Shown in pieces: positions 7,277 to 45,440 of a DNA stretch of 64,000 bases. The notes beneath the pieces were generated by a model. That model saw only the letters and a program-made list of their open reading frames with translations. It searched no databases and was not told the origin of the DNA. The position numbers and the translations under genes were made by a program. Source of the stretch: Oscillospiraceae bacterium (GTDB lineage Bacteria; Bacillota; Clostridia; UMGS1810); NCBI GenBank assembly GCA_015068705.1, contig SVJZ01000001.1, forward strand, positions 1 through 64,000, written 5' to 3'. Position 1 is the first letter of the stretch; every line of letters starts with the position of its first letter.

Positions 7277-9609
7277 CATTCTAACAGCATATCCAGATCG
7301 AGAACACCCAATTCTTCTTTTTGTGCAGGGGTAGTAGTTGTGTTCCCCTGCTGATTGCCCGAAGCTCCGGAAGGGGGCTGTGTTGCGCCGTTTCCATCCG
7401 AAGGTGCAACCGTTCCCGTTTCTCCCGTTCCGGGTGCTGCCGTTCCGTTTGGCGGAACAACCAATTCGCCGGTTTCAAGGTCTATCACACCGCCTTCGGG
7501 ATTTTCGGTAACGGGCGGCACTTCGTGCTCTATATTACAGATGCCGGAAGGCGCAGTTCCCTTGCGGAAATATTCGGTCACTGCAAGACTTTTTCCCTCT
7601 TTGTTTAAACAGTTCTCCCCTGCCAACATTCCACTGGAGGTGCACACGGTAGCACTTATCACTCCTTTTGGACGTTCAAAACTCTTGTTGGGCAACGGAG
7701 CATGTACCTGATCCATTACCTTTTTCCACGCACGCAGAGCCGGGTTGGAAGATAGTGCAGGCAGACCCTTGTTTGCATCATATCCAAACCAGACTGTTCC
7801 GGTGTAATACGGCGTAAAGCCGATAAACCAGCGATCCATATCATCATCCGTTGTACCGGTTTTACCGGCGGTATCCATGCCGGAAATCTTGGCGCCCACA
7901 CCGGTACCACGGTCTACAACACTCTTGAGTAACTGACACATGATATAGGCAGTGTCTTCACGGAATGCGGTTTTTTGTGCCGAATGACATTCCAACAACT
8001 TGCGTCCTTTGGAATCCTCCACATGGGTATACATGATGGGTTGCATATATACACCCTTGTTCACAAATGCACCAAAGGCTGCATTCATTTCCATCGGGAT
8101 TACACCGTGTGTCAAGCCACCCAATGCCAAGCTGGAGAGATTTTTATCGCTATAAACCTTTCCATCCTGAAGTTCCCGGTTGACCAATGTGGTAAACCCA
8201 AGCCGCTCGGTCATGTACTTGAACGATTCTTCCACACCAAGCTTTTGCAACGCCTTAACGGCAGGAATATTACTGGACTGTTCGATTGCACGGCGCACCG
8301 TCATGGGACCGTAAAAGCCGGAATAATAGTTTTTGGGCGACCAACCATTGATGTTAATGCGCTCATCCATCAACTGGGTTGCGCCGGTAATTACGCCCAA
8401 ATCCACTGCGGGTCCGTAAACAGAAATCGGTTTGATGGTAGACCCCGGTTGACGCTTGCTCTGGGTTGCGCGGTTGAGCAACCGGCTGCCACTCTTGACG
8501 CCGCGTCCACCTACAACGCCCTTAACTTCGCCGGTATACGGATCGGAAATCACCATTGCCGATTCAGGTTGCACCTCGCCGCTTAATTTGGGGAAATTAT
8601 CAGGATTTTCATATACGTCGTTCATAATTTCCTGAATACGCGGGTCTACTGTCGCATAGATTTTCAAGCCACTGTTATACAACATTTGTTCTGCGATGGT
8701 TTCGCTGACTTCTTCTTGTTCAACAAGTTGGTCGATAATATCCTCAATCAGTTGGTCTACAAAGTAGGATTGACCGCTCCGGCGCTCTTTCTGCTGACCA
8801 GGGACAATATTTAGTTTTTCAGCAACCGCCGTATCGTGTTCCGACTGATCAATATATCCGAGTTCAAGCATTTTTGCAAGAACAAGTTCCTGTTTTTCCT
8901 TGTTTTTTTCTGGGTTTACCAGTGGGTCATACAAGCTTGGGAACTGAGTAATACCTGCAATGGATGCACATTCTGCAAGGGTGAGTTCGGAAACGGTTTT
9001 TCCAAAATACATATTTGCAGCAGATTCCACGCCATTGCACCCCTGCCCAAGATAGATGGAATTTAAATACAATTCCAAAATCTGATCCTTGGACAATTTG
9101 GTTTCCAATATCAATGCACGGATGATTTCACGCGCCTTACGCACATAACTTTTATCCCGGTCGCCGGTAAGATTTTTCACAAGCTGCTGGGTGATAGTAC
9201 TTCCGCCGTAGGAAGAATCCCCCTTGAAGATGACATTTAGTGCTGCACCCATGGTACGTTTCAAATCCATTCCGTGATGAGTATAAAAACGTTGATCCTC
9301 AATCGCAACCGCCGCATCTTTCATGTTTTGCGGCATTTCATCATAATCCTTCCACACACGATTTTCCTTGGAAAGGATACGCTCAAACTCTACATATTCA
9401 CCGGTTTGCGCATCCTTATAATACACAACGCTGGTCAAATGCAAATTCAGTTGTTCAATGGAATCACCAAAACCAAATCCCACACCCCACATTGCCCAAA
9501 TACCAATTACCAGGCAGAACAACACAAAAGCCAAAGCGCCCCATTTGACAGTCGCACGCAGTTTTGAATGATTTCCTTTTTTATTTGCACTTCGTTTTGT
9601 CTTCTTCAT
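7276..9609 (-). CDS. Class A penicillin-binding protein (PBP1A type)
   Basis: A 777-residue bifunctional cell-wall synthase. A cationic N-terminus and one membrane anchor (about 24-46) are followed by a glycosyltransferase family 51 domain (catalytic Glu104 in EDQRFYTHHGMD; GGSTITQQLVKN) and a transpeptidase domain with the active-site Ser near residue 390 (PGSTIK), an SSN motif (EQSSNIPAVKAL) and KTGTT. The C-terminal ~100 residues are a low-complexity Pro/Gly/Thr/Gln tail, probably wall-spanning. I start at 9609 because GGAGGTG lies 5 bp upstream; a GTG-region start seven codons earlier has no such site. Monocistronic with its own probable promoter. Confidence 0.93.
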   Translation of the reverse strand: MKKTKRSANKKGNHSKLRATVKWGALAFVLFCLVIGIWAMWGVGFGFGDSIEQLNLHLTSVVYYKDAQTGEYVEFERILSKENRVWKDYDEMPQNMKDAAVAIEDQRFYTHHGMDLKRTMGAALNVIFKGDSSYGGSTITQQLVKNLTGDRDKSYVRKAREIIRALILETKLSKDQILELYLNSIYLGQGCNGVESAANMYFGKTVSELTLAECASIAGITQFPSLYDPLVNPEKNKEKQELVLAKMLELGYIDQSEHDTAVAEKLNIVPGQQKERRSGQSYFVDQLIEDIIDQLVEQEEVSETIAEQMLYNSGLKIYATVDPRIQEIMNDVYENPDNFPKLSGEVQPESAMVISDPYTGEVKGVVGGRGVKSGSRLLNRATQSKRQPGSTIKPISVYGPAVDLGVITGATQLMDERININGWSPKNYYSGFYGPMTVRRAIEQSSNIPAVKALQKLGVEESFKYMTERLGFTTLVNRELQDGKVYSDKNLSSLALGGLTHGVIPMEMNAAFGAFVNKGVYMQPIMYTHVEDSKGRKLLECHSAQKTAFREDTAYIMCQLLKSVVDRGTGVGAKISGMDTAGKTGTTDDDMDRWFIGFTPYYTGTVWFGYDANKGLPALSSNPALRAWKKVMDQVHAPLPNKSFERPKGVISATVCTSSGMLAGENCLNKEGKSLAVTEYFRKGTAPSGICNIEHEVPPVTENPEGGVIDLETGELVVPPNGTAAPGTGETGTVAPSDGNGATQPPSGASGNQQGNTTTTPAQKEELGVLDLDMLLE

Positions 9610-33719: not shown

Positions 33720-34232
33720 TTATATATTAATTAGCACAAATATGGCAACAATGCAAACTGTGGTGACAATACCGCTGAAAAGCAAGCGTTTTGCCGCGCA
33801 AGATAAATGTTTTCTTACTGCATCAAACTCTTTAAACATATAGTAGATATCTTCCTCGCGCAACTTTAAATCGTTGTTTTTCTGGCGATATTCATCTACT
33901 TTGATATGATCAAGCGCCACCTTCCAGGATTGTATGCAAAAATCTCCGGATGCCACCAGCATAACAGCATAAACACACAGAAACCCGATCAAGTGCGGCA
34001 TACCTGCCAACCGGGTGCCAACCAGATTGAGCAATAATGTCATGGGAATACTGGAAATGATACCCGAAATAAACACACTCAAATTCTGATTTCTGGAAAC
34101 CAGATAGTAAAGCCACAATTCGCTCACCGACAGCTGCGCATAAATCTCTCTCTGTTTTTCATTTACCGGCTCCAAGTCCTCTTTCGTCATCTTGGCACGA
34201 ACCTTTGCCTCAAGAGTTTTTTCGCTCATCAC
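33720..34232 (-). CDS. Small membrane protein of the solenoid-ATPase locus, unknown function
   Basis: A 170-residue protein I do not recognise. A charged N-terminal helix (1-45; EAKVRAKMTKEDLEPVNEKQ) is followed by three hydrophobic segments (about 50-75, 80-100 and 148-168), with a Lys/Asp/Glu-rich cytoplasmic loop or coiled part (about 105-147) between the second and third. The GTG at 34232 (or the ATG one codon later) overlaps the stop of the AAA ATPase upstream, with GAGGAG spaced for the GTG. Being the last gene of a tightly overlapping trio, it may anchor the ATPases to the membrane or be a membrane effector; this is inference. Confidence 0.65.
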   Translation of the reverse strand: MMSEKTLEAKVRAKMTKEDLEPVNEKQREIYAQLSVSELWLYYLVSRNQNLSVFISGIISSIPMTLLLNLVGTRLAGMPHLIGFLCVYAVMLVASGDFCIQSWKVALDHIKVDEYRQKNNDLKLREEDIYYMFKEFDAVRKHLSCAAKRLLFSGIVTTVCIVAIFVLINI

Positions 34233-35623
34233 GATTCCATCTCCTCATATTCATTATAGTATGCCTCATACAATTTTTGCATCACTTCTACCATCTGCGG
34301 TTGCGACTGATATTGCATAAGTTGATCCATGTTTTTCTTCATGCCGTCATGTAATGTTTCGCATCTCTTTCTTGTCATTTCAACCGCTTCGGGTTTCCTT
34401 GCATTCTTGCACTCCTCAATGCGCGTTTCAATCTGTTTGAGAAGAACTTCCATCTTGTTCTGTATCTCTTTCATTTCGGGGCAAATAGTAGAGACCGCCT
34501 GTTCGGGTGGAGCAATCACCTCTACTACAATATCTTTTTTCGTTGATGCAAAGTTCTCTCCAGCATATTCCCGGAATAAGCTACAACAAAAACGCATATT
34601 TCCGTTACCCGACTTATTCTGCCCGGTAGGGTCTTCATCCTGCACAATAAATCCCCGTGATTTGATAATCTCGTATGGGATATACTCATCACCTTTGCAG
34701 TATGTACTTATTGTGTTCTCGGTCGCCTCTCTTCCAAGCAATGCTCTTTGCAAATCGCTCAAATCAGAACACCATTTTTTAAAATAATTATATTTAAAAT
34801 TTTCCCGTATCTGTTGTCTGAACACAGTTTCATCCTGCATACCGCGTATCTTCATTTCACACAACTGCCATGCAGCAGTATGCGCCAATCCCAGTATACC
34901 ACCACTTACCGAAAAGATTAGTTCCCTCTCTGATACAGTAAACGGACATTGCTCCCCTTCCGGGAAAAACCCATCTAAAAATTGGTCAAATTCCTCTTTC
35001 TTCATACCAGAAAGTTGCAAGCGCTTTTTCGCAAAGATTTCGGTAAAAAAGGAGGTGTTAAACTGCTCACTGTTTTTGGAATTGGTTTTTTCAAAATCAT
35101 AGTCGGTTGCCACGATGTATCCCAGTTGTTTGGTAGAGTGCAGACTACGGAATTTACTGTAATCGGTATCCTTAATCCGTTCAGATTGCGCCAGTCGCTG
35201 AAATTCATCAATCACCAGAGAAACGCGGTATTCCGCTTTGGTCAATGCCGTCAGCATGACTTCCAGATAATCGGACATCCGCCCCTGTCCTTCTTGGGGT
35301 ACGCAAAGTCCCACCTCAGGTGCATAGCTTGCTGCATATTCCGCCACTTTTTTGCAGATGCTGTAAAAAAATGTACCGGGTTCGATCTGTTCCTCTGCCT
35401 TCAGCATGGGAAAAAGCATCTTTTTTCTTGCAAGTTCCCGGCAACGGTCGGGCGAAAAAAACGTATCCAGAAATTCACTCTTGCCCGAGCCGGACAACCC
35501 ATAAACGGCACAGTTGATTGCCTCGCTTTCCGGTGTATGTTCAATGCGGTTCTCCAACTGCCTGCACATTTGGCTTGCCACCGGATTTACATAGCTATGT
35601 TCATCAAAAGGATTGTAAATCAT
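34229..35623 (-). CDS. AAA/STAND-like ATPase with C-terminal coiled coil
   Basis: A 464-residue P-loop ATPase. It begins NPFDEHSYVNPVA, then has Walker A GLSGSGKS (residues 42-49), Walker B LVIDEF (136-141) and a sensor-like region IVATDYDF; the type resembles archaeal/bacterial AAA_16 or STAND-like ATPases rather than a transporter. After a helical middle domain the last ~90 residues (about 375-460) form a heptad-like coiled coil (EIQNKMEVLLKQIETRIEE). The ATG at 35623 overlaps the stop of the giant gene (ATGA), and its own stop overlaps the membrane-protein start. A longer frame starting at 35641 has no better ribosome binding site. It probably works in one complex with the giant protein, whose own C-terminus carries a related ATPase. 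Confidence 0.75.
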   Translation of the reverse strand: MIYNPFDEHSYVNPVASQMCRQLENRIEHTPESEAINCAVYGLSGSGKSEFLDTFFSPDRCRELARKKMLFPMLKAEEQIEPGTFFYSICKKVAEYAASYAPEVGLCVPQEGQGRMSDYLEVMLTALTKAEYRVSLVIDEFQRLAQSERIKDTDYSKFRSLHSTKQLGYIVATDYDFEKTNSKNSEQFNTSFFTEIFAKKRLQLSGMKKEEFDQFLDGFFPEGEQCPFTVSERELIFSVSGGILGLAHTAAWQLCEMKIRGMQDETVFRQQIRENFKYNYFKKWCSDLSDLQRALLGREATENTISTYCKGDEYIPYEIIKSRGFIVQDEDPTGQNKSGNGNMRFCCSLFREYAGENFASTKKDIVVEVIAPPEQAVSTICPEMKEIQNKMEVLLKQIETRIEECKNARKPEAVEMTRKRCETLHDGMKKNMDQLMQYQSQPQMVEVMQKLYEAYYNEYEEMES

Positions 35624-38600
35624 TTCTCTGCTTCCTCCCATTTTGAAAAATACAATTCGGCAGGGGAACTGTTTGTAAATTCCATCCGGTACATCTCGGA
35701 TGTAAATTGATATCCCTCTGTAATACTTCCCTCAACAAAGGTCCGTTCGTCCAAACGCCGTAGACCCTCTGTTACATCAACAGGAATACCTTTCGCATTT
35801 TCGAAAACATTTGCCGCAATATCCAGATAAGAAACCGGTTGGTCAGGAACTTTCGCCAGTGTTGACAGCGCCTCCATCACCATACTTTCATCTCTGTTGT
35901 ACCGGCTGATCCGATCCTCGCCGAGAATTTCATCTCTTTTGCCGAAAATACCACGCAACCCCTGTGTTACTTTGTCAGTTCCCCGTACAATCTCGGAATA
36001 AGCGCTATACACATCATACAAGTGCATCTCATCACGTTCGTCAGTGAAATCCTCCCCTTCTCCTCGAAACAACGAAACAACCGCATTGTAAAAATGTTTG
36101 GTGTAATAAACCTGACCCCGTGTAAGCCGCCATAATTCTTCCCGCGCCAGTTCATCAGGCACCACACCCCTGCTCTGTTTTTCTCCCTTTGCATTTGTTC
36201 CTGTTTTTTCGGTACAAAAATCCAGCAACTCCGCATATTCATCCTTTGTCATCCTGCCAATGGGGAAAGATTTTAGAATCTGAAAAAACTGAGTGGCGTT
36301 TTCCATATCAAACATCACACCAATCAAATCGTCTGATCCACAAACAATAAGACTGATAATATTAGGCAGAGTTTTGCTCATATATTGGAACATATTGCAT
36401 ATTTTCTTGGTGGATTTTCCATCCGGCGAATTGGAATCCGGCACCCGGAACGCAGACTCAATTTCATCCACAAAGCAAAGAATTTTCCGGCCATTGGCAA
36501 ACTTTTGGTGAAATGCCCGTAAAAAGTTCTCCCATGTGTAGGTACTGAAATTTCCTTTCGGAAGATTTTGGATGATTTCCTTGTATTCATCGGTATTTCG
36601 TACCTTTCCGTACCGTTCTTCCCAGCTATCGGTAAATTTACGGATAAACAGAATCTCAAACGGATTTTCATCTGTTGAATCAATACTTTGGGCATCCAGA
36701 TAAATATGGCACCACAAATCCGGAATGGTTGACACAATACTTCCAATCATATGGAGCATGGAGGATTTTCCTACACGCTTGGGACCATTTACCAAAAGTG
36801 ACTGCACATTACGAGGGGAACGAGCCCGCCCTATGCCATTATCCTCCCCTTCAAAAAACATTGCTTTGGCACGACTGATTTCGCCGTGACGGCCGACAAA
36901 AGCATCTATATTATCCTCGCGCACCGTATTCATATCCAGATTAAACAGCGGATATTTTTGGGGCTGGGTAACAGAAACATCAAAGCTTTCGGTTTTTTCT
37001 TTTCGTTCATCGGAAACAGTATACGCCAACCTTATCACGCAATGATTCTGTGTTTCGCACGTTGCACCAAGCAGATAGAACCCAAACGGCGCATACCTTC
37101 CCGGATGAATTTTCTCCATGGTCGTTTTCTGTTTTCTGCCGTTAGGGTGAATTACCGTCAATTCAACACGACTTGCCGCCTGTAATCCATAATTATGTAC
37201 ATAACCGGTAACCCGATTTCCCTCATGTATCTCGATAGAATCCAGACAAATGTGAAACAGTGCTGTTTGACGAAGCTCATTTTCTTTCTTTTCGATTATG
37301 CCACTCAAATGCGAACAGGTTGTCCGAAGCAGATTTTCTGAAACTGTCTGCTCCATTTTTACCATTTCGTCCTTTATCGCTCTGGTCTGAGAAAGCCTAT
37401 CCTCTACCGTACAATTGATGGGATCGACATCATACAACCGACCAAGCAGTTCCAACACCTTGCACAGACACTCCTGTTTTTCGGTGAGTTCGGCATCGCC
37501 ACTGCTTTTCAGCAAGCTCAACAGCTTGTCAGTTTTTCTGCCAAACAATTTGTCGATACCGCACAGTTCGTCCTCACTACGCAAAATATCAAGCAAAATA
37601 TCGCATAAGATCACTTTGGTATTCACATCAATTCCCGACATGGTTTCAAGGCAACGCAAAAAGTCCTTGGCATACTCTCTGCATTCAAACGGCGATTTTC
37701 CATTTTTGCGTTCCTCCCGATACACCACCATTCCGAATTTAAAGAAAAACTGATTTAACACTCCTATATCCATGGTGGCAAAATCGCCTGCTCCCAAAAC
37801 CCTTTTTCCTTTTTCTACCAGGTTTTTGGTGTCAATATTTCTATCAAAATGCCTGTCAAAGTTTTTGAGTGCGACTTCGCAACTGATTACACCTTTGCTT
37901 AATTCATCCTGTTTTTTCATATAAGGCTTTGCAAAAGACATTTCACGCAGTATTTCCATTTCCAACGCCGGTGCCTGGTACAATACTTCCTCTCCCCATG
38001 CTGCATCCATTCCCTTTGACAATCCGATAATCTCGGCAATATTGAGTCGATAGATGGCGGGATTAGGCGCAGGGCTGATAAAAAATGGTTGTCTTGCATC
38101 CTTTGAAGTAATATAAGACATACAAGTCTCTTTTTGGGAAGCATCCGAAAACCGTAATCTGCCGTACCAGAAAACAGTTTCGCCCAAGCCGCGGTGTGCC
38201 TTCCATATTTCACGGGCTATTGCTTCAAAATCGGAGAAACGATTTACCAATGCATAAAAGACCGCGACACACACGCGTTTTTGGAGTTTGTTCAGTGCGG
38301 GTGCAATTTTAGAAAGGTCTTCTGCACGGGGCGATGCAAACACGCCGGCAAACAAATCAATGAATTTTCTCCACTGTTGTTCGGTTTCCAGTTTTTCAAT
38401 TTCCCTCTCTTTTCCAAGCACCAACCCGCAAAACCACTTACGCCGTTTGGTAAACTTGCGGGTAAAAGAAACTTCCTTTTTCTCCTGCCCCTTCTTCCTT
38501 GCTTTTTCCGCTTCGTCTGCCTGACAAAGGATTTCCAGGATGGGATATACCTGCTCATAATCCCCTCGGTCAAAAAGCAGATTGCACAGAGAACGCAGGA

Positions 38601-41600
38601 AATCACGATAATCTTTATATTCTGTCTGAGCAGATTCCATACGGCACTGCTGCACAATCTCTCCGGCAGCCGCTCTTAAATACCCCTTTGGCGCCAGTGC
38701 AAGACTATTCAGTAAAATAGTGTTTGGCACGAGCAACCGCATTGCAGGAATCATCTGCGCATAGATATCCGGCGTTGCAAACTGCAATGCATTTTGCGCC
38801 ATGGTTACTGCTCCACCTTTATCCACAAGAGTAGAACGCAACCAGCGTTCCATCAATTTTTTGGCATGGTCACTCTGCAAAGCATCCGTTGCAATCCGTA
38901 CCCTTACAAGCTCATCATTACGCAAAAAAGGTTCGGCATATATGGTTTTTCCGGAAATTTTAGCCCCTGCTACACTACGCAACAATTTTTCCCGTCCCAT
39001 CAATTTATTGATGAAATCGGATAATTCCCCAATCTGACGAGATGAGATTTCCTCGCACAACGGCGAACACACAAACTCTCTCCAGTTTCCGGTAAGGCCC
39101 GCCAGAAGCGCCATCTGGAATAATTCGTTTTCTTTTTCCATCATATCAACAATGTGCGCAAACTGATGCACCTCTTCTTTGAGGGTGTCCGATGAAACTG
39201 CCGCGTCAAAATAGTGCATTACTTCTTCGCGCGTAGCCGGAATGCCATCCTGCGCAACCGAAAAGCCCATTACAGATGCATATTCTACAGCGCAAAGGAG
39301 CATTTTGGTGTAATTGGCAATCAAATCTTCGCTTTTGATGCTCTTGTCCAGATAGCAGAACAAATCGTGGTAAATGGAGGAAATTTCTGCATTGTCGGGT
39401 GCTTGCTGTACCGTGTGTGCGCACTTGAGGTAATATAAGATTTCATACAGCAAACCGTCGCCCGGAAAATAGGAAAGCAATAGTTCTGCTCCGCCAATTC
39501 CTTCTGTCCCATCCAATTTTGAATCAAACATGAATGCGCGGTAAAGGTATTGGTACATTTTTTCTACATTGATCATACCACCATTTGGAATGAACATCTG
39601 CGCAGCACATCGCCGCACTGGACTAACCAAAAACTTTTCAGGAGGCTCGGTAATGTTTACTGCAAAATTCTTTGCCGAAAAACTCTCCGGCACTTCCTGT
39701 ATCAGTATCTGACGAAGTCTGTCTGCCAATTCGCGTGTTTTCTTCCCCTTAAAATAGAGGGTAAACATAAGCCCGATCAAAGCCCATGGATCTGCTTTGA
39801 GCTGGTCTGCAAACCGGTCAACAAATAAATCCATACAATTGGCGCAAAATCCCAACTCTCTTGCCGCATATAGCAGCTCCAGAATGGTTGCACGGTTCTT
39901 TCCTTCCATCGCCTGCTTCATTTGCTCATAAATCGTTTCCAACACCTCGGCAGGCAAATCGATTTCGGATGCATCCGCACATATTCCGGTCAATTCTCTG
40001 CAAACATTGACAATTTCGGCTTCTTCAACTGCGTGCTCCAGCATCAGACACAAGCCATACACATGGTGCATCGTCAAGTGATTGTTTTGTGTAAAAGCAA
40101 GGAAATTACGCAACTCTGCCGGCGAGGTTTTGGCAATGGCATAGCGAATATTCGCCTGCGCCAATACACTTTTCGTTTCATAAATCGGAAGAATCGTCTG
40201 CCACACCTCTGTATAGCGAAAACCGGCAATCACCGCGCAAACAACCGTACCCATGTCACCCGTACGACATATTCCATTACGGATAACCCGTGTCAACTCT
40301 GTCATGACATCTTCTTCGCTACGTTCAATAAACCCTTCCCACTTTTTCGCAAACGTCGCAATTTCTTGTGGGTTTTTATCCGAAATGGCTCGTTCAAATG
40401 CCGATACCACTCTGTCCCCCGACAAATCATCCCCACGACTCTCGCACAACTGTGCAAACGCCTTTCTTTCCTCGGAAGAATTCCACAGGCCCAGATTCAT
40501 CATTAAAAGATAAGATAATATAGTGGCATCTACATCATCTGCGATATAGAGAAAATCATACAATGCCTCCATCACTTCACGGGTTGCCGTCTTTGCTGCA
40601 TAAGCCATGTATCCGTTTTTAAAATCCTGTACCCATTCAGGGCGCAACGATTCAAAAACAACCTCGGTATCAAGATGTTTATGCAAAAAACGATAAGCAG
40701 CATTCTCTTTTTTGCGCAAAGCGGTTTCGGCAAGACCATTCACCACTTCTGTGCGACATCTTCCCTGTTTACAGAGCGTATCCAATATGTCCAATACATC
40801 CGGACAAACCAAAAATGAATTTCCGCTCATTTCGTTTAAAAACAAACGCAAACTATCGTCATCACCGCGCTCGTTCGCCTGAGAAAGCGCCTGAATTATC
40901 ATCTGTGAAATGGTGTCATTTTCATTTGCATATGCGATGTTTTTCACCAATATCTCAATATGTTTTTCCGGAAACATATCCAGCACAACCGAATAAAACT
41001 TACTGTTAAACGAATCGGTCTGTTCAATACCAACTGCATTTTCCCGATACCATCGTTGGACAATTTCTTCATCCACCTGTGCCATGGACTTGCATGACCA
41101 ATACACTGGCAGTGTCATGTCCAATCCCAACCGGATTGCCTCATCCACCACCATATTGCGCTCTTGTATGGTCATATTTCCCACTTCAGACATACTCTTA
41201 CAAGCAACCAGATTACCATACAAAACCAAAATGGAAAATGCCCCACCGCAAATCCGTGCAATCGCAGCGTATTCCTGCCCATTCTTCAGTTCTGTCACCA
41301 AATCCGAAAGCATGGCAATATCTGCCGGGTTGAATATTGCAGTTTTGGCAATTTCTTCTGCTACCTGTTCAAACCGCTCATCCGCACCATCTTTTCCCAT
41401 TGCACGTTCCTGAATCAACAAAGAAGCGCAGAAAAACTTATGCCGTTTTCCATAAGGACATTCTCCCGAGAAATACTCCTGCAAAAACCGTTCTGTCTGT
41501 TTAGCATAATACAACGCGTCCATATAATGCGCGGTGGTTTCCACCCGTTTGGTAAGGAAATCGGGCACCTCATCACAAAGCGCAAGAGCCTCAGCATAAC

Positions 41601-42888
41601 GTCCCTCATCACAATACAGATGCAGCATAATCTGCGCCGCACCCCGGTGATTTTTACATTCTTTACGCAAATAACGCTCGGCAAGTCCGTTTTTGTTCTC
41701 CTGCAACCGATGCAAACGGGTACCGATTTCTGCGTCGCTTCCTCCTTTTGGCATGGTTGCAACACTGGACGAAATACGCTCTATCTCTGCATCGGTATAT
41801 CCAAGCGCAGAAAGTCTGCCCTTGTCCTGTAAATATGTATTCAATTCGTCCGACAGGTCAATGACCGCCTGCTCAAATGCATTGGGGCGGTACTCTTCTT
41901 TCTTGTTGAGCAAATTTTCAAGGGATTCATAACCGGTCAAATCATAATCAGAAAGAATGTGTTCTTTCAGGGCAACATCGGTGAGTTGTTCTGCCAGATT
42001 CTCAATCACATCCAATGCATCTGCAGGCATACGGCTATGCAGCAATGCCCATGCATATGCATCCGGAATCCCTTCTTTCTCGCAACAGTTGGCAAGATTT
42101 GATTCAAAGCACAGCGTTATCCAGTCATTGAGTCCATTGTTTTTCATGATATTCAATGCATATGCCACATTATGCGTCACCAGATAGTAGCAGCAATAAC
42201 GCAATGCCAGCAACGACCGGTCTCCCAAAAACAGACGCATACGTTCCGCTGAATAATAATCTCCTTTTCTGGAAATAATCTCACCCGGTTCAGCAAGCAA
42301 AATCCGCTCGATTTCTTCCGGTTCATATCCCAAAGCGGTCAGTTCGTTTTGCTCACTGCAATAATAATTTATTTTCTCCGCATCGCCTTCTACCAGGGCT
42401 TGCTCAAAGTCGTTTACCACATGAGAGCGCCCCGCCACCTGCTTCCATGCACGGCAAGCAGCAACCACTGTTTCTCCGAATTGCTCAGGCGGACTCTGCA
42501 ATATCACATCGCAGATTGCCTCATCACAAATCAGATGCGGTCTGGCACAAATCATGTGCGCAGCTTCTTCCATTCGTCCCGCAAGACAATAGGCGGAAAA
42601 TACCGAACAAAGTTGCTCAAAGCGCCAGTGCGCCACCCGTTGCGGATGCGCATCATACATAGAAAGTATCTTTTTGCTCTGCTTTTCCTTAGCATACACC
42701 AACAATAGCAACGAATATGCGTGCTCATACTGCATCATGTTCAAAAGCGCGCACTCCACCTGACGGTTGACATTTCCCTGCAAATGGTACAGTAATTCCA
42801 CAAGGCGGAATTCTCCTTCCACCTTATCAAAACTCCCGTTTTCAAATTCCATTTGGATCTGTTCCAACAGGGCAGGGGTATACCCCAT
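35620..42888 (-). CDS. Giant alpha-solenoid protein with C-terminal AAA/STAND-like ATPase (downstream part of a split gene)
   Basis: A 2,422-residue frame I do not recognise as a named family. About residues 1-1850 are almost all helical and Leu/Ala/Glu-rich with short hairpins, like TPR/HEAT-type solenoids. Units with the pattern N-x-F-E-x-A ... (25-26 residues) ... GY-x3-(E/L)(I/L)E-x-I recur with GY at residues 187 and 363. A beta-sandwich-like domain follows (about 1885-1970; GNRVTGYVHNYGLQAASRVE). The ATPase has FVGRHGEISRAKAMFF at about 1995, Walker A GPKRVGKSS (about 2034), Walker B LCFVDEIESAF (about 2135) and a sensor-like VCGSDDL; a winged-helix-like tail ends the protein. The ATG at 42888 has no ribosome binding site and lies inside a repeat that starts in the upstream, different frame: evidence that the two are one gene broken by a one-base frameshift (GGGG at 42883-42886). 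Function unknown; conflict-system sensor is my inference. Confidence 0.78.
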   Translation of the reverse strand: MGYTPALLEQIQMEFENGSFDKVEGEFRLVELLYHLQGNVNRQVECALLNMMQYEHAYSLLLLVYAKEKQSKKILSMYDAHPQRVAHWRFEQLCSVFSAYCLAGRMEEAAHMICARPHLICDEAICDVILQSPPEQFGETVVAACRAWKQVAGRSHVVNDFEQALVEGDAEKINYYCSEQNELTALGYEPEEIERILLAEPGEIISRKGDYYSAERMRLFLGDRSLLALRYCCYYLVTHNVAYALNIMKNNGLNDWITLCFESNLANCCEKEGIPDAYAWALLHSRMPADALDVIENLAEQLTDVALKEHILSDYDLTGYESLENLLNKKEEYRPNAFEQAVIDLSDELNTYLQDKGRLSALGYTDAEIERISSSVATMPKGGSDAEIGTRLHRLQENKNGLAERYLRKECKNHRGAAQIMLHLYCDEGRYAEALALCDEVPDFLTKRVETTAHYMDALYYAKQTERFLQEYFSGECPYGKRHKFFCASLLIQERAMGKDGADERFEQVAEEIAKTAIFNPADIAMLSDLVTELKNGQEYAAIARICGGAFSILVLYGNLVACKSMSEVGNMTIQERNMVVDEAIRLGLDMTLPVYWSCKSMAQVDEEIVQRWYRENAVGIEQTDSFNSKFYSVVLDMFPEKHIEILVKNIAYANENDTISQMIIQALSQANERGDDDSLRLFLNEMSGNSFLVCPDVLDILDTLCKQGRCRTEVVNGLAETALRKKENAAYRFLHKHLDTEVVFESLRPEWVQDFKNGYMAYAAKTATREVMEALYDFLYIADDVDATILSYLLMMNLGLWNSSEERKAFAQLCESRGDDLSGDRVVSAFERAISDKNPQEIATFAKKWEGFIERSEEDVMTELTRVIRNGICRTGDMGTVVCAVIAGFRYTEVWQTILPIYETKSVLAQANIRYAIAKTSPAELRNFLAFTQNNHLTMHHVYGLCLMLEHAVEEAEIVNVCRELTGICADASEIDLPAEVLETIYEQMKQAMEGKNRATILELLYAARELGFCANCMDLFVDRFADQLKADPWALIGLMFTLYFKGKKTRELADRLRQILIQEVPESFSAKNFAVNITEPPEKFLVSPVRRCAAQMFIPNGGMINVEKMYQYLYRAFMFDSKLDGTEGIGGAELLLSYFPGDGLLYEILYYLKCAHTVQQAPDNAEISSIYHDLFCYLDKSIKSEDLIANYTKMLLCAVEYASVMGFSVAQDGIPATREEVMHYFDAAVSSDTLKEEVHQFAHIVDMMEKENELFQMALLAGLTGNWREFVCSPLCEEISSRQIGELSDFINKLMGREKLLRSVAGAKISGKTIYAEPFLRNDELVRVRIATDALQSDHAKKLMERWLRSTLVDKGGAVTMAQNALQFATPDIYAQMIPAMRLLVPNTILLNSLALAPKGYLRAAAGEIVQQCRMESAQTEYKDYRDFLRSLCNLLFDRGDYEQVYPILEILCQADEAEKARKKGQEKKEVSFTRKFTKRRKWFCGLVLGKEREIEKLETEQQWRKFIDLFAGVFASPRAEDLSKIAPALNKLQKRVCVAVFYALVNRFSDFEAIAREIWKAHRGLGETVFWYGRLRFSDASQKETCMSYITSKDARQPFFISPAPNPAIYRLNIAEIIGLSKGMDAAWGEEVLYQAPALEMEILREMSFAKPYMKKQDELSKGVISCEVALKNFDRHFDRNIDTKNLVEKGKRVLGAGDFATMDIGVLNQFFFKFGMVVYREERKNGKSPFECREYAKDFLRCLETMSGIDVNTKVILCDILLDILRSEDELCGIDKLFGRKTDKLLSLLKSSGDAELTEKQECLCKVLELLGRLYDVDPINCTVEDRLSQTRAIKDEMVKMEQTVSENLLRTTCSHLSGIIEKKENELRQTALFHICLDSIEIHEGNRVTGYVHNYGLQAASRVELTVIHPNGRKQKTTMEKIHPGRYAPFGFYLLGATCETQNHCVIRLAYTVSDERKEKTESFDVSVTQPQKYPLFNLDMNTVREDNIDAFVGRHGEISRAKAMFFEGEDNGIGRARSPRNVQSLLVNGPKRVGKSSMLHMIGSIVSTIPDLWCHIYLDAQSIDSTDENPFEILFIRKFTDSWEERYGKVRNTDEYKEIIQNLPKGNFSTYTWENFLRAFHQKFANGRKILCFVDEIESAFRVPDSNSPDGKSTKKICNMFQYMSKTLPNIISLIVCGSDDLIGVMFDMENATQFFQILKSFPIGRMTKDEYAELLDFCTEKTGTNAKGEKQSRGVVPDELAREELWRLTRGQVYYTKHFYNAVVSLFRGEGEDFTDERDEMHLYDVYSAYSEIVRGTDKVTQGLRGIFGKRDEILGEDRISRYNRDESMVMEALSTLAKVPDQPVSYLDIAANVFENAKGIPVDVTEGLRRLDERTFVEGSITEGYQFTSEMYRMEFTNSSPAELYFSKWEEAEK

Positions 42889-43895
42889 CTCAGCATCTGT
42901 TGATTATCTTGTGCGAGCAGTTTTGCCTGCTCAATTTCCCCTCCCAAAATTGCCACCTCAAACGGGTTGGCTTTAGGAAACTCCCCATCCGAAAGCAGGG
43001 ATTTTAATTCTTCATCCGAATACCGAACACGGGGTATGGAAGATTCATTGGTTGCGGCACACTTATGATATAATTTTGCAAAAAACGGTTTATTGGTGGA
43101 GAAATTTTCCAACTCCGGGTTTTCCTGCAGATATGCCCGAAGCGCCTCTGCTCCATCGGTATAAGCAATCGCAGTTGCATAGCATTTCATCAGTCCCATG
43201 TTGGGGGTCATTCCATTTTCCAAGGCATGATTATAGAGCGAAATCAAACGGGTATACTCCTCTAGCTGAATGAGAATCTTACACAGTTCAAAAAGGGCAG
43301 CCACCCGCCTTGTTAAATTATCCGCCCCCACATATGCCCGCGCATGCACAAAACGCTGAATTTTCACATCCAGCCTGCTCCCAAAAAGCTGCTGACAACG
43401 AACAGAGCTCCAATAATGAGAACCATCCCATTTGAGCACAGGCGCCTTTTTCAACAAATTATCGACATCTTCTTCATTCAGGTTCATTTCCTCGCGAGCC
43501 TGCGCATTCTGCAAAACCTGCAACATTGCATCCAATGTTCCATAAACAATCTCGTGTACCAATGCAGGCATTTCGGGTGGATTGGAAAGAATATCCTTCA
43601 ATTCATCAGGCAGTTCCATTTCACCTTCTGCCCCTGTATCTGCAGTTATATTTTTCGGTGTATCAACATGCGCACGCTCCCCGTCGGATGCAGGCATATT
43701 CGCAGCAGGATAAAAGCACACCAATTGTGCAAACCCTACCTGCACATCTCCCTGCTGTGTTAGCAGCACGGCACTGTCCATGCGCACGCCATCTAATTTT
43801 CCGGTTAGGGTTGATCCATCCTTCAACACAAAGGTGATGTCCTTCCCCATCAACGCAAATAACCCTTCTATGATCGGCATAAAATTCTCAGCCAT
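42741..43895 (-). CDS. N-terminal part of the split giant protein (small beta domain plus first solenoid repeat)
   Basis: A 384-codon frame; only the first ~337 codons look real, the last ~47 read the giant gene out of frame. Residues 1-65 form a small beta-barrel-like domain (DITFVLKDGSTLTGKLDGVR ... VQVGFAQLVCF), similar in pattern to Sm/LSm or SH3-like modules. A disordered linker (66-95) leads into helices. Residues 291-337 match the internal repeat of the giant protein (YSDEELKSLL ... NPFEVAILGG ... ), but the GY-x-P-A-L-L-E-Q-I end of this repeat is encoded in the other frame, from 42888 on. Adding one G to the GGGG at 42883-42886 restores WGYTPALLEQI with the exact 26-residue spacing seen in the other repeats. 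GGAGGGAG precedes the ATG. The joined protein would be about 2,760 residues. Confidence 0.7.
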   Translation of the reverse strand: MAENFMPIIEGLFALMGKDITFVLKDGSTLTGKLDGVRMDSAVLLTQQGDVQVGFAQLVCFYPAANMPASDGERAHVDTPKNITADTGAEGEMELPDELKDILSNPPEMPALVHEIVYGTLDAMLQVLQNAQAREEMNLNEEDVDNLLKKAPVLKWDGSHYWSSVRCQQLFGSRLDVKIQRFVHARAYVGADNLTRRVAALFELCKILIQLEEYTRLISLYNHALENGMTPNMGLMKCYATAIAYTDGAEALRAYLQENPELENFSTNKPFFAKLYHKCAATNESSIPRVRYSDEELKSLLSDGEFPKANPFEVAILGGEIEQAKLLAQDNQQMLRWGIPLPCWNRSKWNLKTGVLIRWKENSALWNYCTICREMSTVRWSARF

Positions 43896-44073: not shown

Positions 44074-45261
44074 ATGACCATCATCGAATATTATTCAGAA
44101 ATTGCGTTGGAAAACGCAGCCAGTACGCTGGCATATCGGGCAAAAGAAACCATTTTGATTTATGACAAAAAAATATTATCACCGCAAATCAGCGCGCATG
44201 CCGCTTGTCTGGAAAAACTGTTTTGCAAAAAAATTCCGGGTTACCGAAAGCTCCATCTCCTTCCGGTGGATGCGTGTGATATTTTTGGTAATGCCGATCT
44301 TATCGTATCTATTGCACAAAACAAAGAAGAATGTATTTTCGATCTTACCGGCGGTGCGGAACCCATCATGGTTTCCATGGGAATGGCGGCAGAGAAGTTG
44401 GGCAATCATCGTATTCATATGCACCAATTTCTGTTGCGTGAAGGGAAATCGGTATGTTGTCACCGTTCTCTCCCCTCTCATGAGGCAATGCCGGTTCAAA
44501 TCCCGGTGGACGAACTGATTGCGTTGCACGGCGGAACGTGTCATTGCGGCATTGCAGATGATACTCCCTCGTTTTCCAAACTGGTTGAAGCCCTTTGGGA
44601 CATCAGTCGTTCCGATCCCACCAATTGGAACAAATGCCTTTTTCTGCTCAATTCCTCCCGTGGCAATAACGGAAAAAATAAGCCGGCGTTGTTTGCCGGA
44701 AATATAAGTGATGTTACAGAGAAAAACCATGTATGTAAAGAAATTATTATCCGTCTGATTTCTGCAGATGTTTTAAGTTCACGGGGAAATCAGTTGTTTT
44801 TTTCTGACCATGAAACCATGAACTGTTTTTTAAAAAACGGCACAGTATTTGAACTGACCGCGCGCAAGGCGGTGGTTGATTTGCTTCGTCGAAACGGGCA
44901 GTATTTCCCGGGTGCAGTGGAGTTTGAGGCACTGATCGAATGGCAGAATAGTGCCGTAAAAAACGAGGTGGATGTTATCTTTATGAATGGCTTGATACCG
45001 GTATTTATCTCGTGTAAGAACGGTGCGGTAGATGATGAGGAATTATATAAATTTAAAACTGTTTCGGAGCAATTTGGTGGGGAAAAAGGGATAAAAATCC
45101 TGTTGGTATCACCCGATGCACTTGGCGACAACACCCAAGCATTTATCGCCCGTGCCCGTCACATGGGCATTCGCGTGATACACAATGTGGGTTCTATGAG
45201 CATCGGCAAGCTCTCGTATGAGATTGCACATCAGGTGGAACTGGCGATGAACAGGATATAA
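44074..45261 (+). CDS. Orphan CARF-domain nuclease, Card1/Can2-like (DUF1887)
   Basis: A 395-residue protein with the two-domain plan of Card1/Can2 and Vibrio VC1899: an N-terminal CARF Rossmann domain (about 1-150) with the ligand-site motif FDLTGGAEPIMVSMGMAAE (89-107), a linker winged-helix region (about 210-255), and a C-terminal PD-(D/E)XK nuclease (about 256-395). Candidate catalytic residues are Glu260 (GTVFELTA), Asp300 (NEVDVIF) and Lys315 (PVFISCKNG), so the nuclease looks intact. Family members bind cyclic oligoadenylate, usually cA4, and then cut nucleic acid. The ATG at 44074 is the only good start; AAAGGG is 13-15 bp upstream. It is divergent from the giant ATPase gene, and no cas genes or CRISPR array are in the window, so the ligand source here is unknown. 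Confidence 0.85.
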   Translation: MTIIEYYSEIALENAASTLAYRAKETILIYDKKILSPQISAHAACLEKLFCKKIPGYRKLHLLPVDACDIFGNADLIVSIAQNKEECIFDLTGGAEPIMVSMGMAAEKLGNHRIHMHQFLLREGKSVCCHRSLPSHEAMPVQIPVDELIALHGGTCHCGIADDTPSFSKLVEALWDISRSDPTNWNKCLFLLNSSRGNNGKNKPALFAGNISDVTEKNHVCKEIIIRLISADVLSSRGNQLFFSDHETMNCFLKNGTVFELTARKAVVDLLRRNGQYFPGAVEFEALIEWQNSAVKNEVDVIFMNGLIPVFISCKNGAVDDEELYKFKTVSEQFGGEKGIKILLVSPDALGDNTQAFIARARHMGIRVIHNVGSMSIGKLSYEIAHQVELAMNRI

Positions 45262-45268
45262 TACATAT

Positions 45269-45297
45269 AAAAAAGCATACCCCAAGGGTATGCTTTT
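45269..45297 (+). terminator. Terminator of the CARF nuclease gene
   Basis: AAAAGCATACCC / GGGTATGCTTTT with a 3-base loop, 8 bp after the stop. Its 3' T-run merges into the tandem repeat that follows. Confidence 0.82.
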
Positions 45298-45440
45298 GGT
45301 GTGTTTTGAGGATAATTTTGATGTAAATTTGGCGCATTTCTCGCGCGGTTTTGGTTCGATTTTGGTGTATTTTGAGGATAATTTTGATGTAAATTTGGTG
45401 TGTTTCTTGCGTGGTCTTGGTTCGATTTTGGTATGCTTTT
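45294..45440. repeat. 66 bp imperfect tandem repeat, T/G-rich
   Basis: Units start at 45294, 45360 and 45426 (third partial) with a period of exactly 66 bp; each begins TTTTGGTGT/TTTTGGTAT and contains GAGGATAATTTTGATGTAAA. The plus strand is strongly T/G-rich. The period is a multiple of three and one frame stays open to about 45493, but no ribosome binding site exists and the frame starts inside the terminator hairpin, so I treat it as non-coding. Confidence 0.75.

What the first reader, a model, noticed from the sequence alone, without database searches (positions are those of the whole stretch)
44074..45261. Card1/DUF1887-type CARF nuclease without any CRISPR locus
The protein keeps the CARF ligand-site DLTGGAEP and the nuclease residues Glu260, Asp300 and Lys315, so it should respond to a cyclic oligoadenylate. 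The known source of that signal is a type III CRISPR polymerase, which is not in this window. Either a distant type III locus feeds it, or the neighbouring ATPases belong to a different sensing route. Orphan DUF1887 proteins such as VC1899 are known, but pairing with a giant ATPase would be new to me.
Basis: partly seen in the sequence, partly recalled or inferred. Interest (0 to 1): 0.75.

Follow-up and report, generated by a model that had tools for sequence, protein, structure and literature searches.

The report
CRISPR-free CARF nuclease, altered catalytic site
A gut Clostridia genome with no detected CRISPR genes carries a relative of a CRISPR-activated nuclease that belongs to a widespread family of its own, with a rearranged cutting site and a signal-binding pocket that looks unfit for the usual CRISPR messenger; the large ATPases beside it are probably there by chance.

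Summary
The gene at 44074-45261 is real: a 395-aa CARF + PD-(D/E)xK protein of the Can2/Card1/VC1899 (DUF1887, CARF4) kind (AF2 pLDDT 91.6; best PDB match VC1899). Csm1, Cmr2, Cas1 and SMODS were not found in its 93%-complete genome, and no Csm1 scored above cut-off in 58 genome entries carrying the family. Relatives occur in 49 of 391 same-class genomes (33 genera), mostly as a solitary gene between housekeeping-like genes. (1) The CARF Lys needed for cA4 (Can2 K99, Can1 K90) is Glu96 here and acidic in most of the clade, so "should respond to cOA" is not supported. (2) The catalytic ExK Glu is Ser (SCK) in nearly the whole clade, and nearly every member instead has an acid 8 or 11 residues after the Lys, suggesting a relocated catalytic acid rather than a dead enzyme. 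The giant ATPase and its AAA partner have no detected relatives in the genomes searched and lie beside no other family member; the pairing is unsupported. A different recurrent partner set (AAA+/M41 protein, RCK-type membrane protein, RyR, YbjN) occurs in 32 of 73 related loci, and kinase-RCK/RyR-CARF-nuclease fusions exist.

The parts
44074..45261 (+). CARF (about 1-130) + PD-(D/E)xK (about 150-395) nuclease, 395 aa, Can2/VC1899-like, SCK clade
44341..44364 (+). CARF motif DLTGGAEP; E96 (44359-44361) sits where Can2 has cA4-binding Lys99
   Evidence: PMC7969007
44095..44097 (+). Ser8, position of Can2 Ser19; acidic in most relatives (36 of 42 class-sampled)
44851..44853 (+). Glu260, predicted metal-site residue (Cdn1 E274 equivalent)
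   Evidence: PMC12825302
44962..44973 (+). N297-E298-V299-D300 (Can2 E276/D278 equivalents)
45010..45018 (+). S313-C314-K315: Ser replaces the catalytic Glu of the ExK motif
45040..45042 (+). Glu323 on the next helix, candidate relocated catalytic acid
33720..34232 (-). neighbour, not shown to be part: 170-aa membrane-like protein, no family match
34229..35641 (-). neighbour, not shown to be part: 470-aa AAA ATPase (AAA_22/TniB-like), Walker A 35477-35500
35620..42888 (-). neighbour, not shown to be part: 2422-aa protein with a C-terminal P-loop-like GPKRVGKSS (36760-36786)
42741..43895 (-). neighbour: probable N-terminal part of the giant protein (Sm-like start), in another frame

Best explanation
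The protein is a member of a large, apparently CRISPR-independent clade of Can2/Card1/VC1899-like proteins in Clostridia. It is most likely a dimeric, metal-dependent nuclease whose active site uses Glu260, Glu298/Asp300 and Lys315, with the usual ExK glutamate replaced by Ser313 and its job taken over by an acidic side chain on the following helix (Glu323 here, position 326 in other members). Its CARF pocket has been remodelled at the residue that grips cyclic oligoadenylate, so it is probably switched on by some other ligand or signal, acting as a stand-alone stress or defence nuclease. Shown here: homology, predicted fold, conservation, absence of detected CRISPR/CBASS genes, no conserved link to the neighbouring ATPases. 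Inferred: catalysis, the relocated acid, dimerisation, the change of ligand and the biological role.
For: Homology and fold. Catalytic residues nearly invariant in a set found without using the motif: in 48 class-sampled rows E260 46, N297 47, E298 46, D300 47, K315 46, with S313 in 46. Acid at 323 or 326 in 45 of 45 class-sampled SCK proteins (13 acid323/K326, 28 E326, 4 both) and 80 of 81 in the motif-found set, while Can2, VC1899 and Cdn1 (ECK), read from printed alignments, have T or N at 323 and K at 326. Precedent: CCGG-family restriction enzymes with PDX21-53KX12-13E (PMC4652773); Cdn1 E323 is a Mg-site residue (PMC12825302). Pocket: position 96 acidic in 26 of 42 class-sampled and 76 of 80 motif-found members; K90E abolishes cA4 binding in Can1 (PMC6981274). 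No Csm1, Cmr2, Cas1 or SMODS in own genome; no Csm1 above cut-off in 58 genome entries carrying the family. Spread over 33 of 222 genera.
Against: No activity or ligand has been measured. The orphan that has been studied, VC1899, showed only weak residual RNase activity. 8 of 42 class-sampled relatives keep a basic residue at the Lys99 position, so part of the clade could still bind a polyanion. In one ECK protein (8bao) position 323 is also acidic, so the acid swap is not a perfect rule. The window protein is only 18-30% identical to the others.
Confidence: 0.6

Rival explanations
1. It is a normal cOA-activated Can2/Card1 effector fed by a type III or CBASS cyclase elsewhere in the cell.
For: Same fold as cA4-bound Can2; TGG motif kept; the assembly is only 93% complete.
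Against: No Csm1, Cmr2, Cas1 or SMODS; no Csm1 above cut-off in other genomes with relatives (19, 42); Glu at the Lys99 position; Ser in place of the ExK Glu.
Confidence: 0.07
2. It is a degenerate leftover nuclease that has lost activity after being cut off from CRISPR, as was proposed for VC1899.
For: Loss of the ExK Glu; closest structure is VC1899, described as possibly degenerate (PMC7969007).
Against: E260, E298, D300, S313, K315 almost invariant over 33 genera and an acid at 323 or 326 in nearly all; intact frame.
Confidence: 0.13
3. The nuclease and the divergent operon (giant ATPase, 470-aa AAA protein, 170-aa membrane-like protein) form one ATPase-gated defence system.
For: Divergent genes sharing a 178-bp gap; other family members recur with other AAA+ genes; one other locus has a divergent Sm-like gene (L184; weak, E 0.002-0.009).
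Against: No relatives of these ORFs in any of 80 motif-found loci or 12 further stretches, none of the giant in 60 genomes or of the AAA protein in 391; no compositional island; most relatives are solitary.
Confidence: 0.12
4. It is a housekeeping nuclease (RNA or DNA turnover or repair) rather than a defence or stress effector.
For: In class-sampled genomes it mostly sits alone beside genes that look like secA, smc, thrS and similar.
Against: Patchy distribution, 49 of 391 genomes; recurrent neighbours and fusions typical of conflict systems (RyR, TIR-like, defence-kinase-like) in part of the family.
Confidence: 0.2

Closest known systems
VC1899 (PDB 1XMX), orphan DUF1887 protein of Vibrio cholerae
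   Same: CARF + PD-(D/E)xK, no CRISPR association, best structural match (TM 0.77/0.79), pocket not suited to cA4 (PMC7969007)
   Different: VC1899 keeps ECK and a basic residue (Arg96) at the Lys99 position; the window protein has SCK, Glu96 and Glu323
Can2 / Card1 (7bdv, 6wxw, 8q3y), type III CRISPR cA4-activated nuclease
   Same: Domain order, fold, E260/E298/D300/K315 equivalents
   Different: No type III system found; Lys99 replaced by Glu; ExK Glu replaced by Ser
Cdn1 (8z4i, 9u49), Can2-family RNase of a type III-B locus
   Same: Metal site E274, D310, K325 correspond to E260, D300, K315
   Different: Cdn1 E323 of the metal site is Ser313 here
CCGG-family restriction enzymes (NgoMIV, Cfr10I, BsaWI)
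   Same: Precedent for the second acidic residue moving to the helix after the catalytic Lys (PMC4652773)
   Different: No homology claimed beyond the PD-(D/E)xK fold; spacing differs (K+12-13 against K+8 or K+11)

Membership tests
Can2/Card1/VC1899 (DUF1887, CARF4 PD-(D/E)xK) | N-terminal CARF + C-terminal Card1-like nuclease domain | tested here: met
   (Pfam just below its cut-off; PADLOC, profile and structure clear)
Can2/Card1/VC1899 (DUF1887, CARF4 PD-(D/E)xK) | Complete catalytic set including the ExK glutamate | tested here: not met
   E260, E298, D300, K315 kept; ExK Glu is Ser313. It is therefore filed as a homologous variant clade, not as a Can2/Card1
cOA-activated type III effector (Can2/Card1) | Encoded in a genome with a type III Cas10 | tested here: not met
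   (assembly 93% complete)
cOA-activated type III effector (Can2/Card1) | cA4-contacting Lys99-equivalent in the CARF pocket | tested here: not met
   Glu96
cOA-activated type III effector (Can2/Card1) | cOA-dependent nuclease activity | not testable with these tools
   needs purified protein
CBASS effector | CD-NTase (SMODS) gene in the genome | tested here: not met
   (one family model only)
ATPase-linked system with the giant neighbour | Conserved co-occurrence of nuclease and ATPase genes | tested here: not met

The most novel reading that the evidence does not exclude
A whole clade of CARF nucleases, present in about an eighth of sampled genomes of this class, works without CRISPR: gated by an unknown non-cOA ligand, cutting with a relocated catalytic acid, and in some lineages wired to kinase, RCK-channel-like, RyR and AAA+ protease modules as a separate immune or stress signalling route.
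Probability: 0.3. Interest if true: 0.75.

Novelty: new variant of a known kind. Interest (0 to 1): 0.5.

Why it matters
CARF domains are usually read as sensors of CRISPR-made cyclic oligoadenylates. A widespread clade whose pocket has lost the key Lys in most members and whose nuclease site has a consistent second solution would show that CARF nucleases serve another signal, and it can be tested directly: bind cOA, cleave nucleic acid, mutate S313, E323 and E96. It also warns against annotating such genes as CRISPR accessories.

Tried and rejected
Conserved pairing with the giant ATPase: no hits in 60 relatives (giant), 391 class genomes or plasmids (470-aa ATPase), 80 motif-found loci or 12 further stretches. 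Distant type III or CBASS; the weak TIGR02578 hits match only short stretches of the model, mostly its N-terminal end, and are far below cut-off. RyR in own genome: no hit, but no control genome rang either, so absence is not shown. Alignment A1 had no stretch conserved enough for the collection scan; A2 worked but its pattern PVF[IV]SCKN biases positions 309-316, so conservation there was re-measured on class-sampled genomes. Compositional island: GC flat. Reciprocal test of the RCK/RyR partner: found in 22 of 391 genomes, next to TIR-like genes in some, next to or fused with the CARF nuclease in few, so it is not an obligate partner; in the class-sampled set only 5 of 47 loci carry any of the recurrent partner families, two of them apparently ordinary ClpC/FtsH genes. 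Papers: the CARF superfamily classification (PMC7498327), the Card1 paper and a second Can2 paper are not held, so an earlier description of this clade could not be ruled out.

Full report
The gene. Window 44074-45261 (+) encodes 395 aa. Pfam Card1_endonuc matches just under its cut-off and PADLOC's CARF4 PD-DEXK profiles match clearly. A nine-sequence profile aligns with Can2 and VC1899 over nearly the full length. The AF2 model is confident (pLDDT 91.6) and its best PDB match is VC1899, then Can2, Cdn1 and Card1. The observation therefore stands.

No CRISPR source found. The whole assembly (1.77 Mb, 36 contigs, 93.4% complete) has no Csm1, Cmr2, Cas1 or SMODS hit; control genomes rang in each of these four searches. 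Ten genomes (own plus nine with relatives) and 48 further genome entries with relatives gave no Csm1 above cut-off (at least one genome, that of L003/L088, is counted twice). Outside the own genome only Csm1 was searched.

A clade of its own. A search of 391 same-class genomes found relatives in 49 (33 of 222 genera); a motif scan of another collection found 163 encoding places, of which 80 were kept. In the class-sampled genomes the gene mostly stands alone between what look like housekeeping genes (names there are read from sequence, most were not run against a library).

Active site. Cdn1 holds Mg through E274, D310, E323 and K325 (PMC12825302); Can2 E276A/D278A is inactive (PMC7969007). 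Here the equivalents are E260, E298/D300, S313 and K315. The Ser is not a lone change: 46 of 48 class-sampled rows have S313 (one split gene makes two of the rows). One kinase fusion (L173) has ECK and one (L174) has lost the motif. All 45 class-sampled SCK proteins carry an acid at 323 or 326, most of them one or the other, and 80 of 81 in the motif-found set do. Can2, VC1899 and Cdn1, read from the printed alignments, have T or N at 323 and K at 326, while 8bao has D at 323. An acid moved to the helix after the Lys is known in CCGG-family restriction enzymes (PMC4652773). I infer an active enzyme with a relocated acid; this is not shown.

Pocket. Alignment places E96 on Can2 Lys99. Can1 K90E abolishes cA4 binding (PMC6981274). 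Position 96 is acidic in 26 and basic in 8 of 42 class-sampled members; position 8 is acidic in 36 of 42. In the motif-found set the figures for acidic residues are 76 of 80 and 74 of 80. The window protein itself has Ser8, Ala95, Glu96. Loss of canonical cOA binding is likely for it, less certain for the whole clade.

Neighbours in the window. The divergent operon holds an N-terminal ORF with an Sm-like start, a 2422-aa protein with a C-terminal P-loop-like motif, a 470-aa AAA protein and a 170-aa membrane-like protein. None has relatives near other family members, and searches of 60 genomes for the giant and 391 for the AAA protein found none elsewhere.

Neighbours elsewhere. In the motif-found loci, 32 of 73 carry at least one of a recurrent set: double-AAA + M41 protein (22), TM + RCK/TrkA-like protein with a RyR-like end (19), YbjN (13), RyR (12); sigma-like and anti-sigma-like genes occur in 7 each. 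The model of the RCK/RyR-like protein is of low confidence (pLDDT 66.6) with weak Slo-channel matches, so 'RCK-like' is tentative. Three proteins of 1334-1412 aa (L131, L173, L174) join a kinase-like region, an RCK/RyR-like region and CARF/nuclease parts (Pfam kinase and Card1_endonuc tested for L131 and L173 only). These link the family to signalling modules in some lineages, not in the window.

Verdict. A new variant of a known kind: a CARF nuclease clade without detected CRISPR, with altered catalytic and pocket residues. The giant-ATPase pairing is unsupported.

Noticed in passing
window 42741-43895 and 35620-42888 (-): The two ORFs overlap by 148 bp in different frames and read like one protein of about 2,750 aa split by a one-base shift (QQML/MGYTP resembles the internal LxALGY segments); real frameshift or assembly error not decided.
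   Followed up: partly
L131 5015-9253 (-), L173 780-4859 (+), L174 1656-5660 (+): Large proteins joining a kinase-like region, an RCK/RyR-like region and CARF-nuclease parts; L173's gene sits beside a PP2C gene and a RyR gene.
   Followed up: partly
L034 3303-12989 and similar loci: Recurrent cluster: RCK-like membrane protein, RyR, double-AAA + M41 protein, CARF nuclease, sigma-like and anti-sigma-like genes, YbjN. A protease with a sigma/anti-sigma pair recalls the CRISPR Calp system (own knowledge).
   Followed up: partly
L177 7575-8093 with 7999-9318; L182 9223-9765 with 8049-9311: A macro-domain gene (Pfam-tested in L177; L182 by sequence similarity) overlaps the CARF nuclease gene.
   Followed up: no
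L138 6576-9059: CARF nuclease read in one frame with a C-terminal part that looks like a CCA-adding enzyme (by eye); fusion or lost stop in a draft genome not tested.
   Followed up: no
L184 7254-7991 (-): Divergent neighbour of a relative has an Sm-like start weakly similar to the window's divergent ORF (phmmer E 0.0017 and 0.0085).
   Followed up: partly
window 45294-45432: Tandem repeat, period 33/66, just downstream of the gene.
   Followed up: no
L139 2380-4863, L140 6617-8527, L141 9624-10613: Elsewhere in the class the RCK/RyR-like protein lies next to genes that look like TIR proteins (read from sequence).
   Followed up: partly
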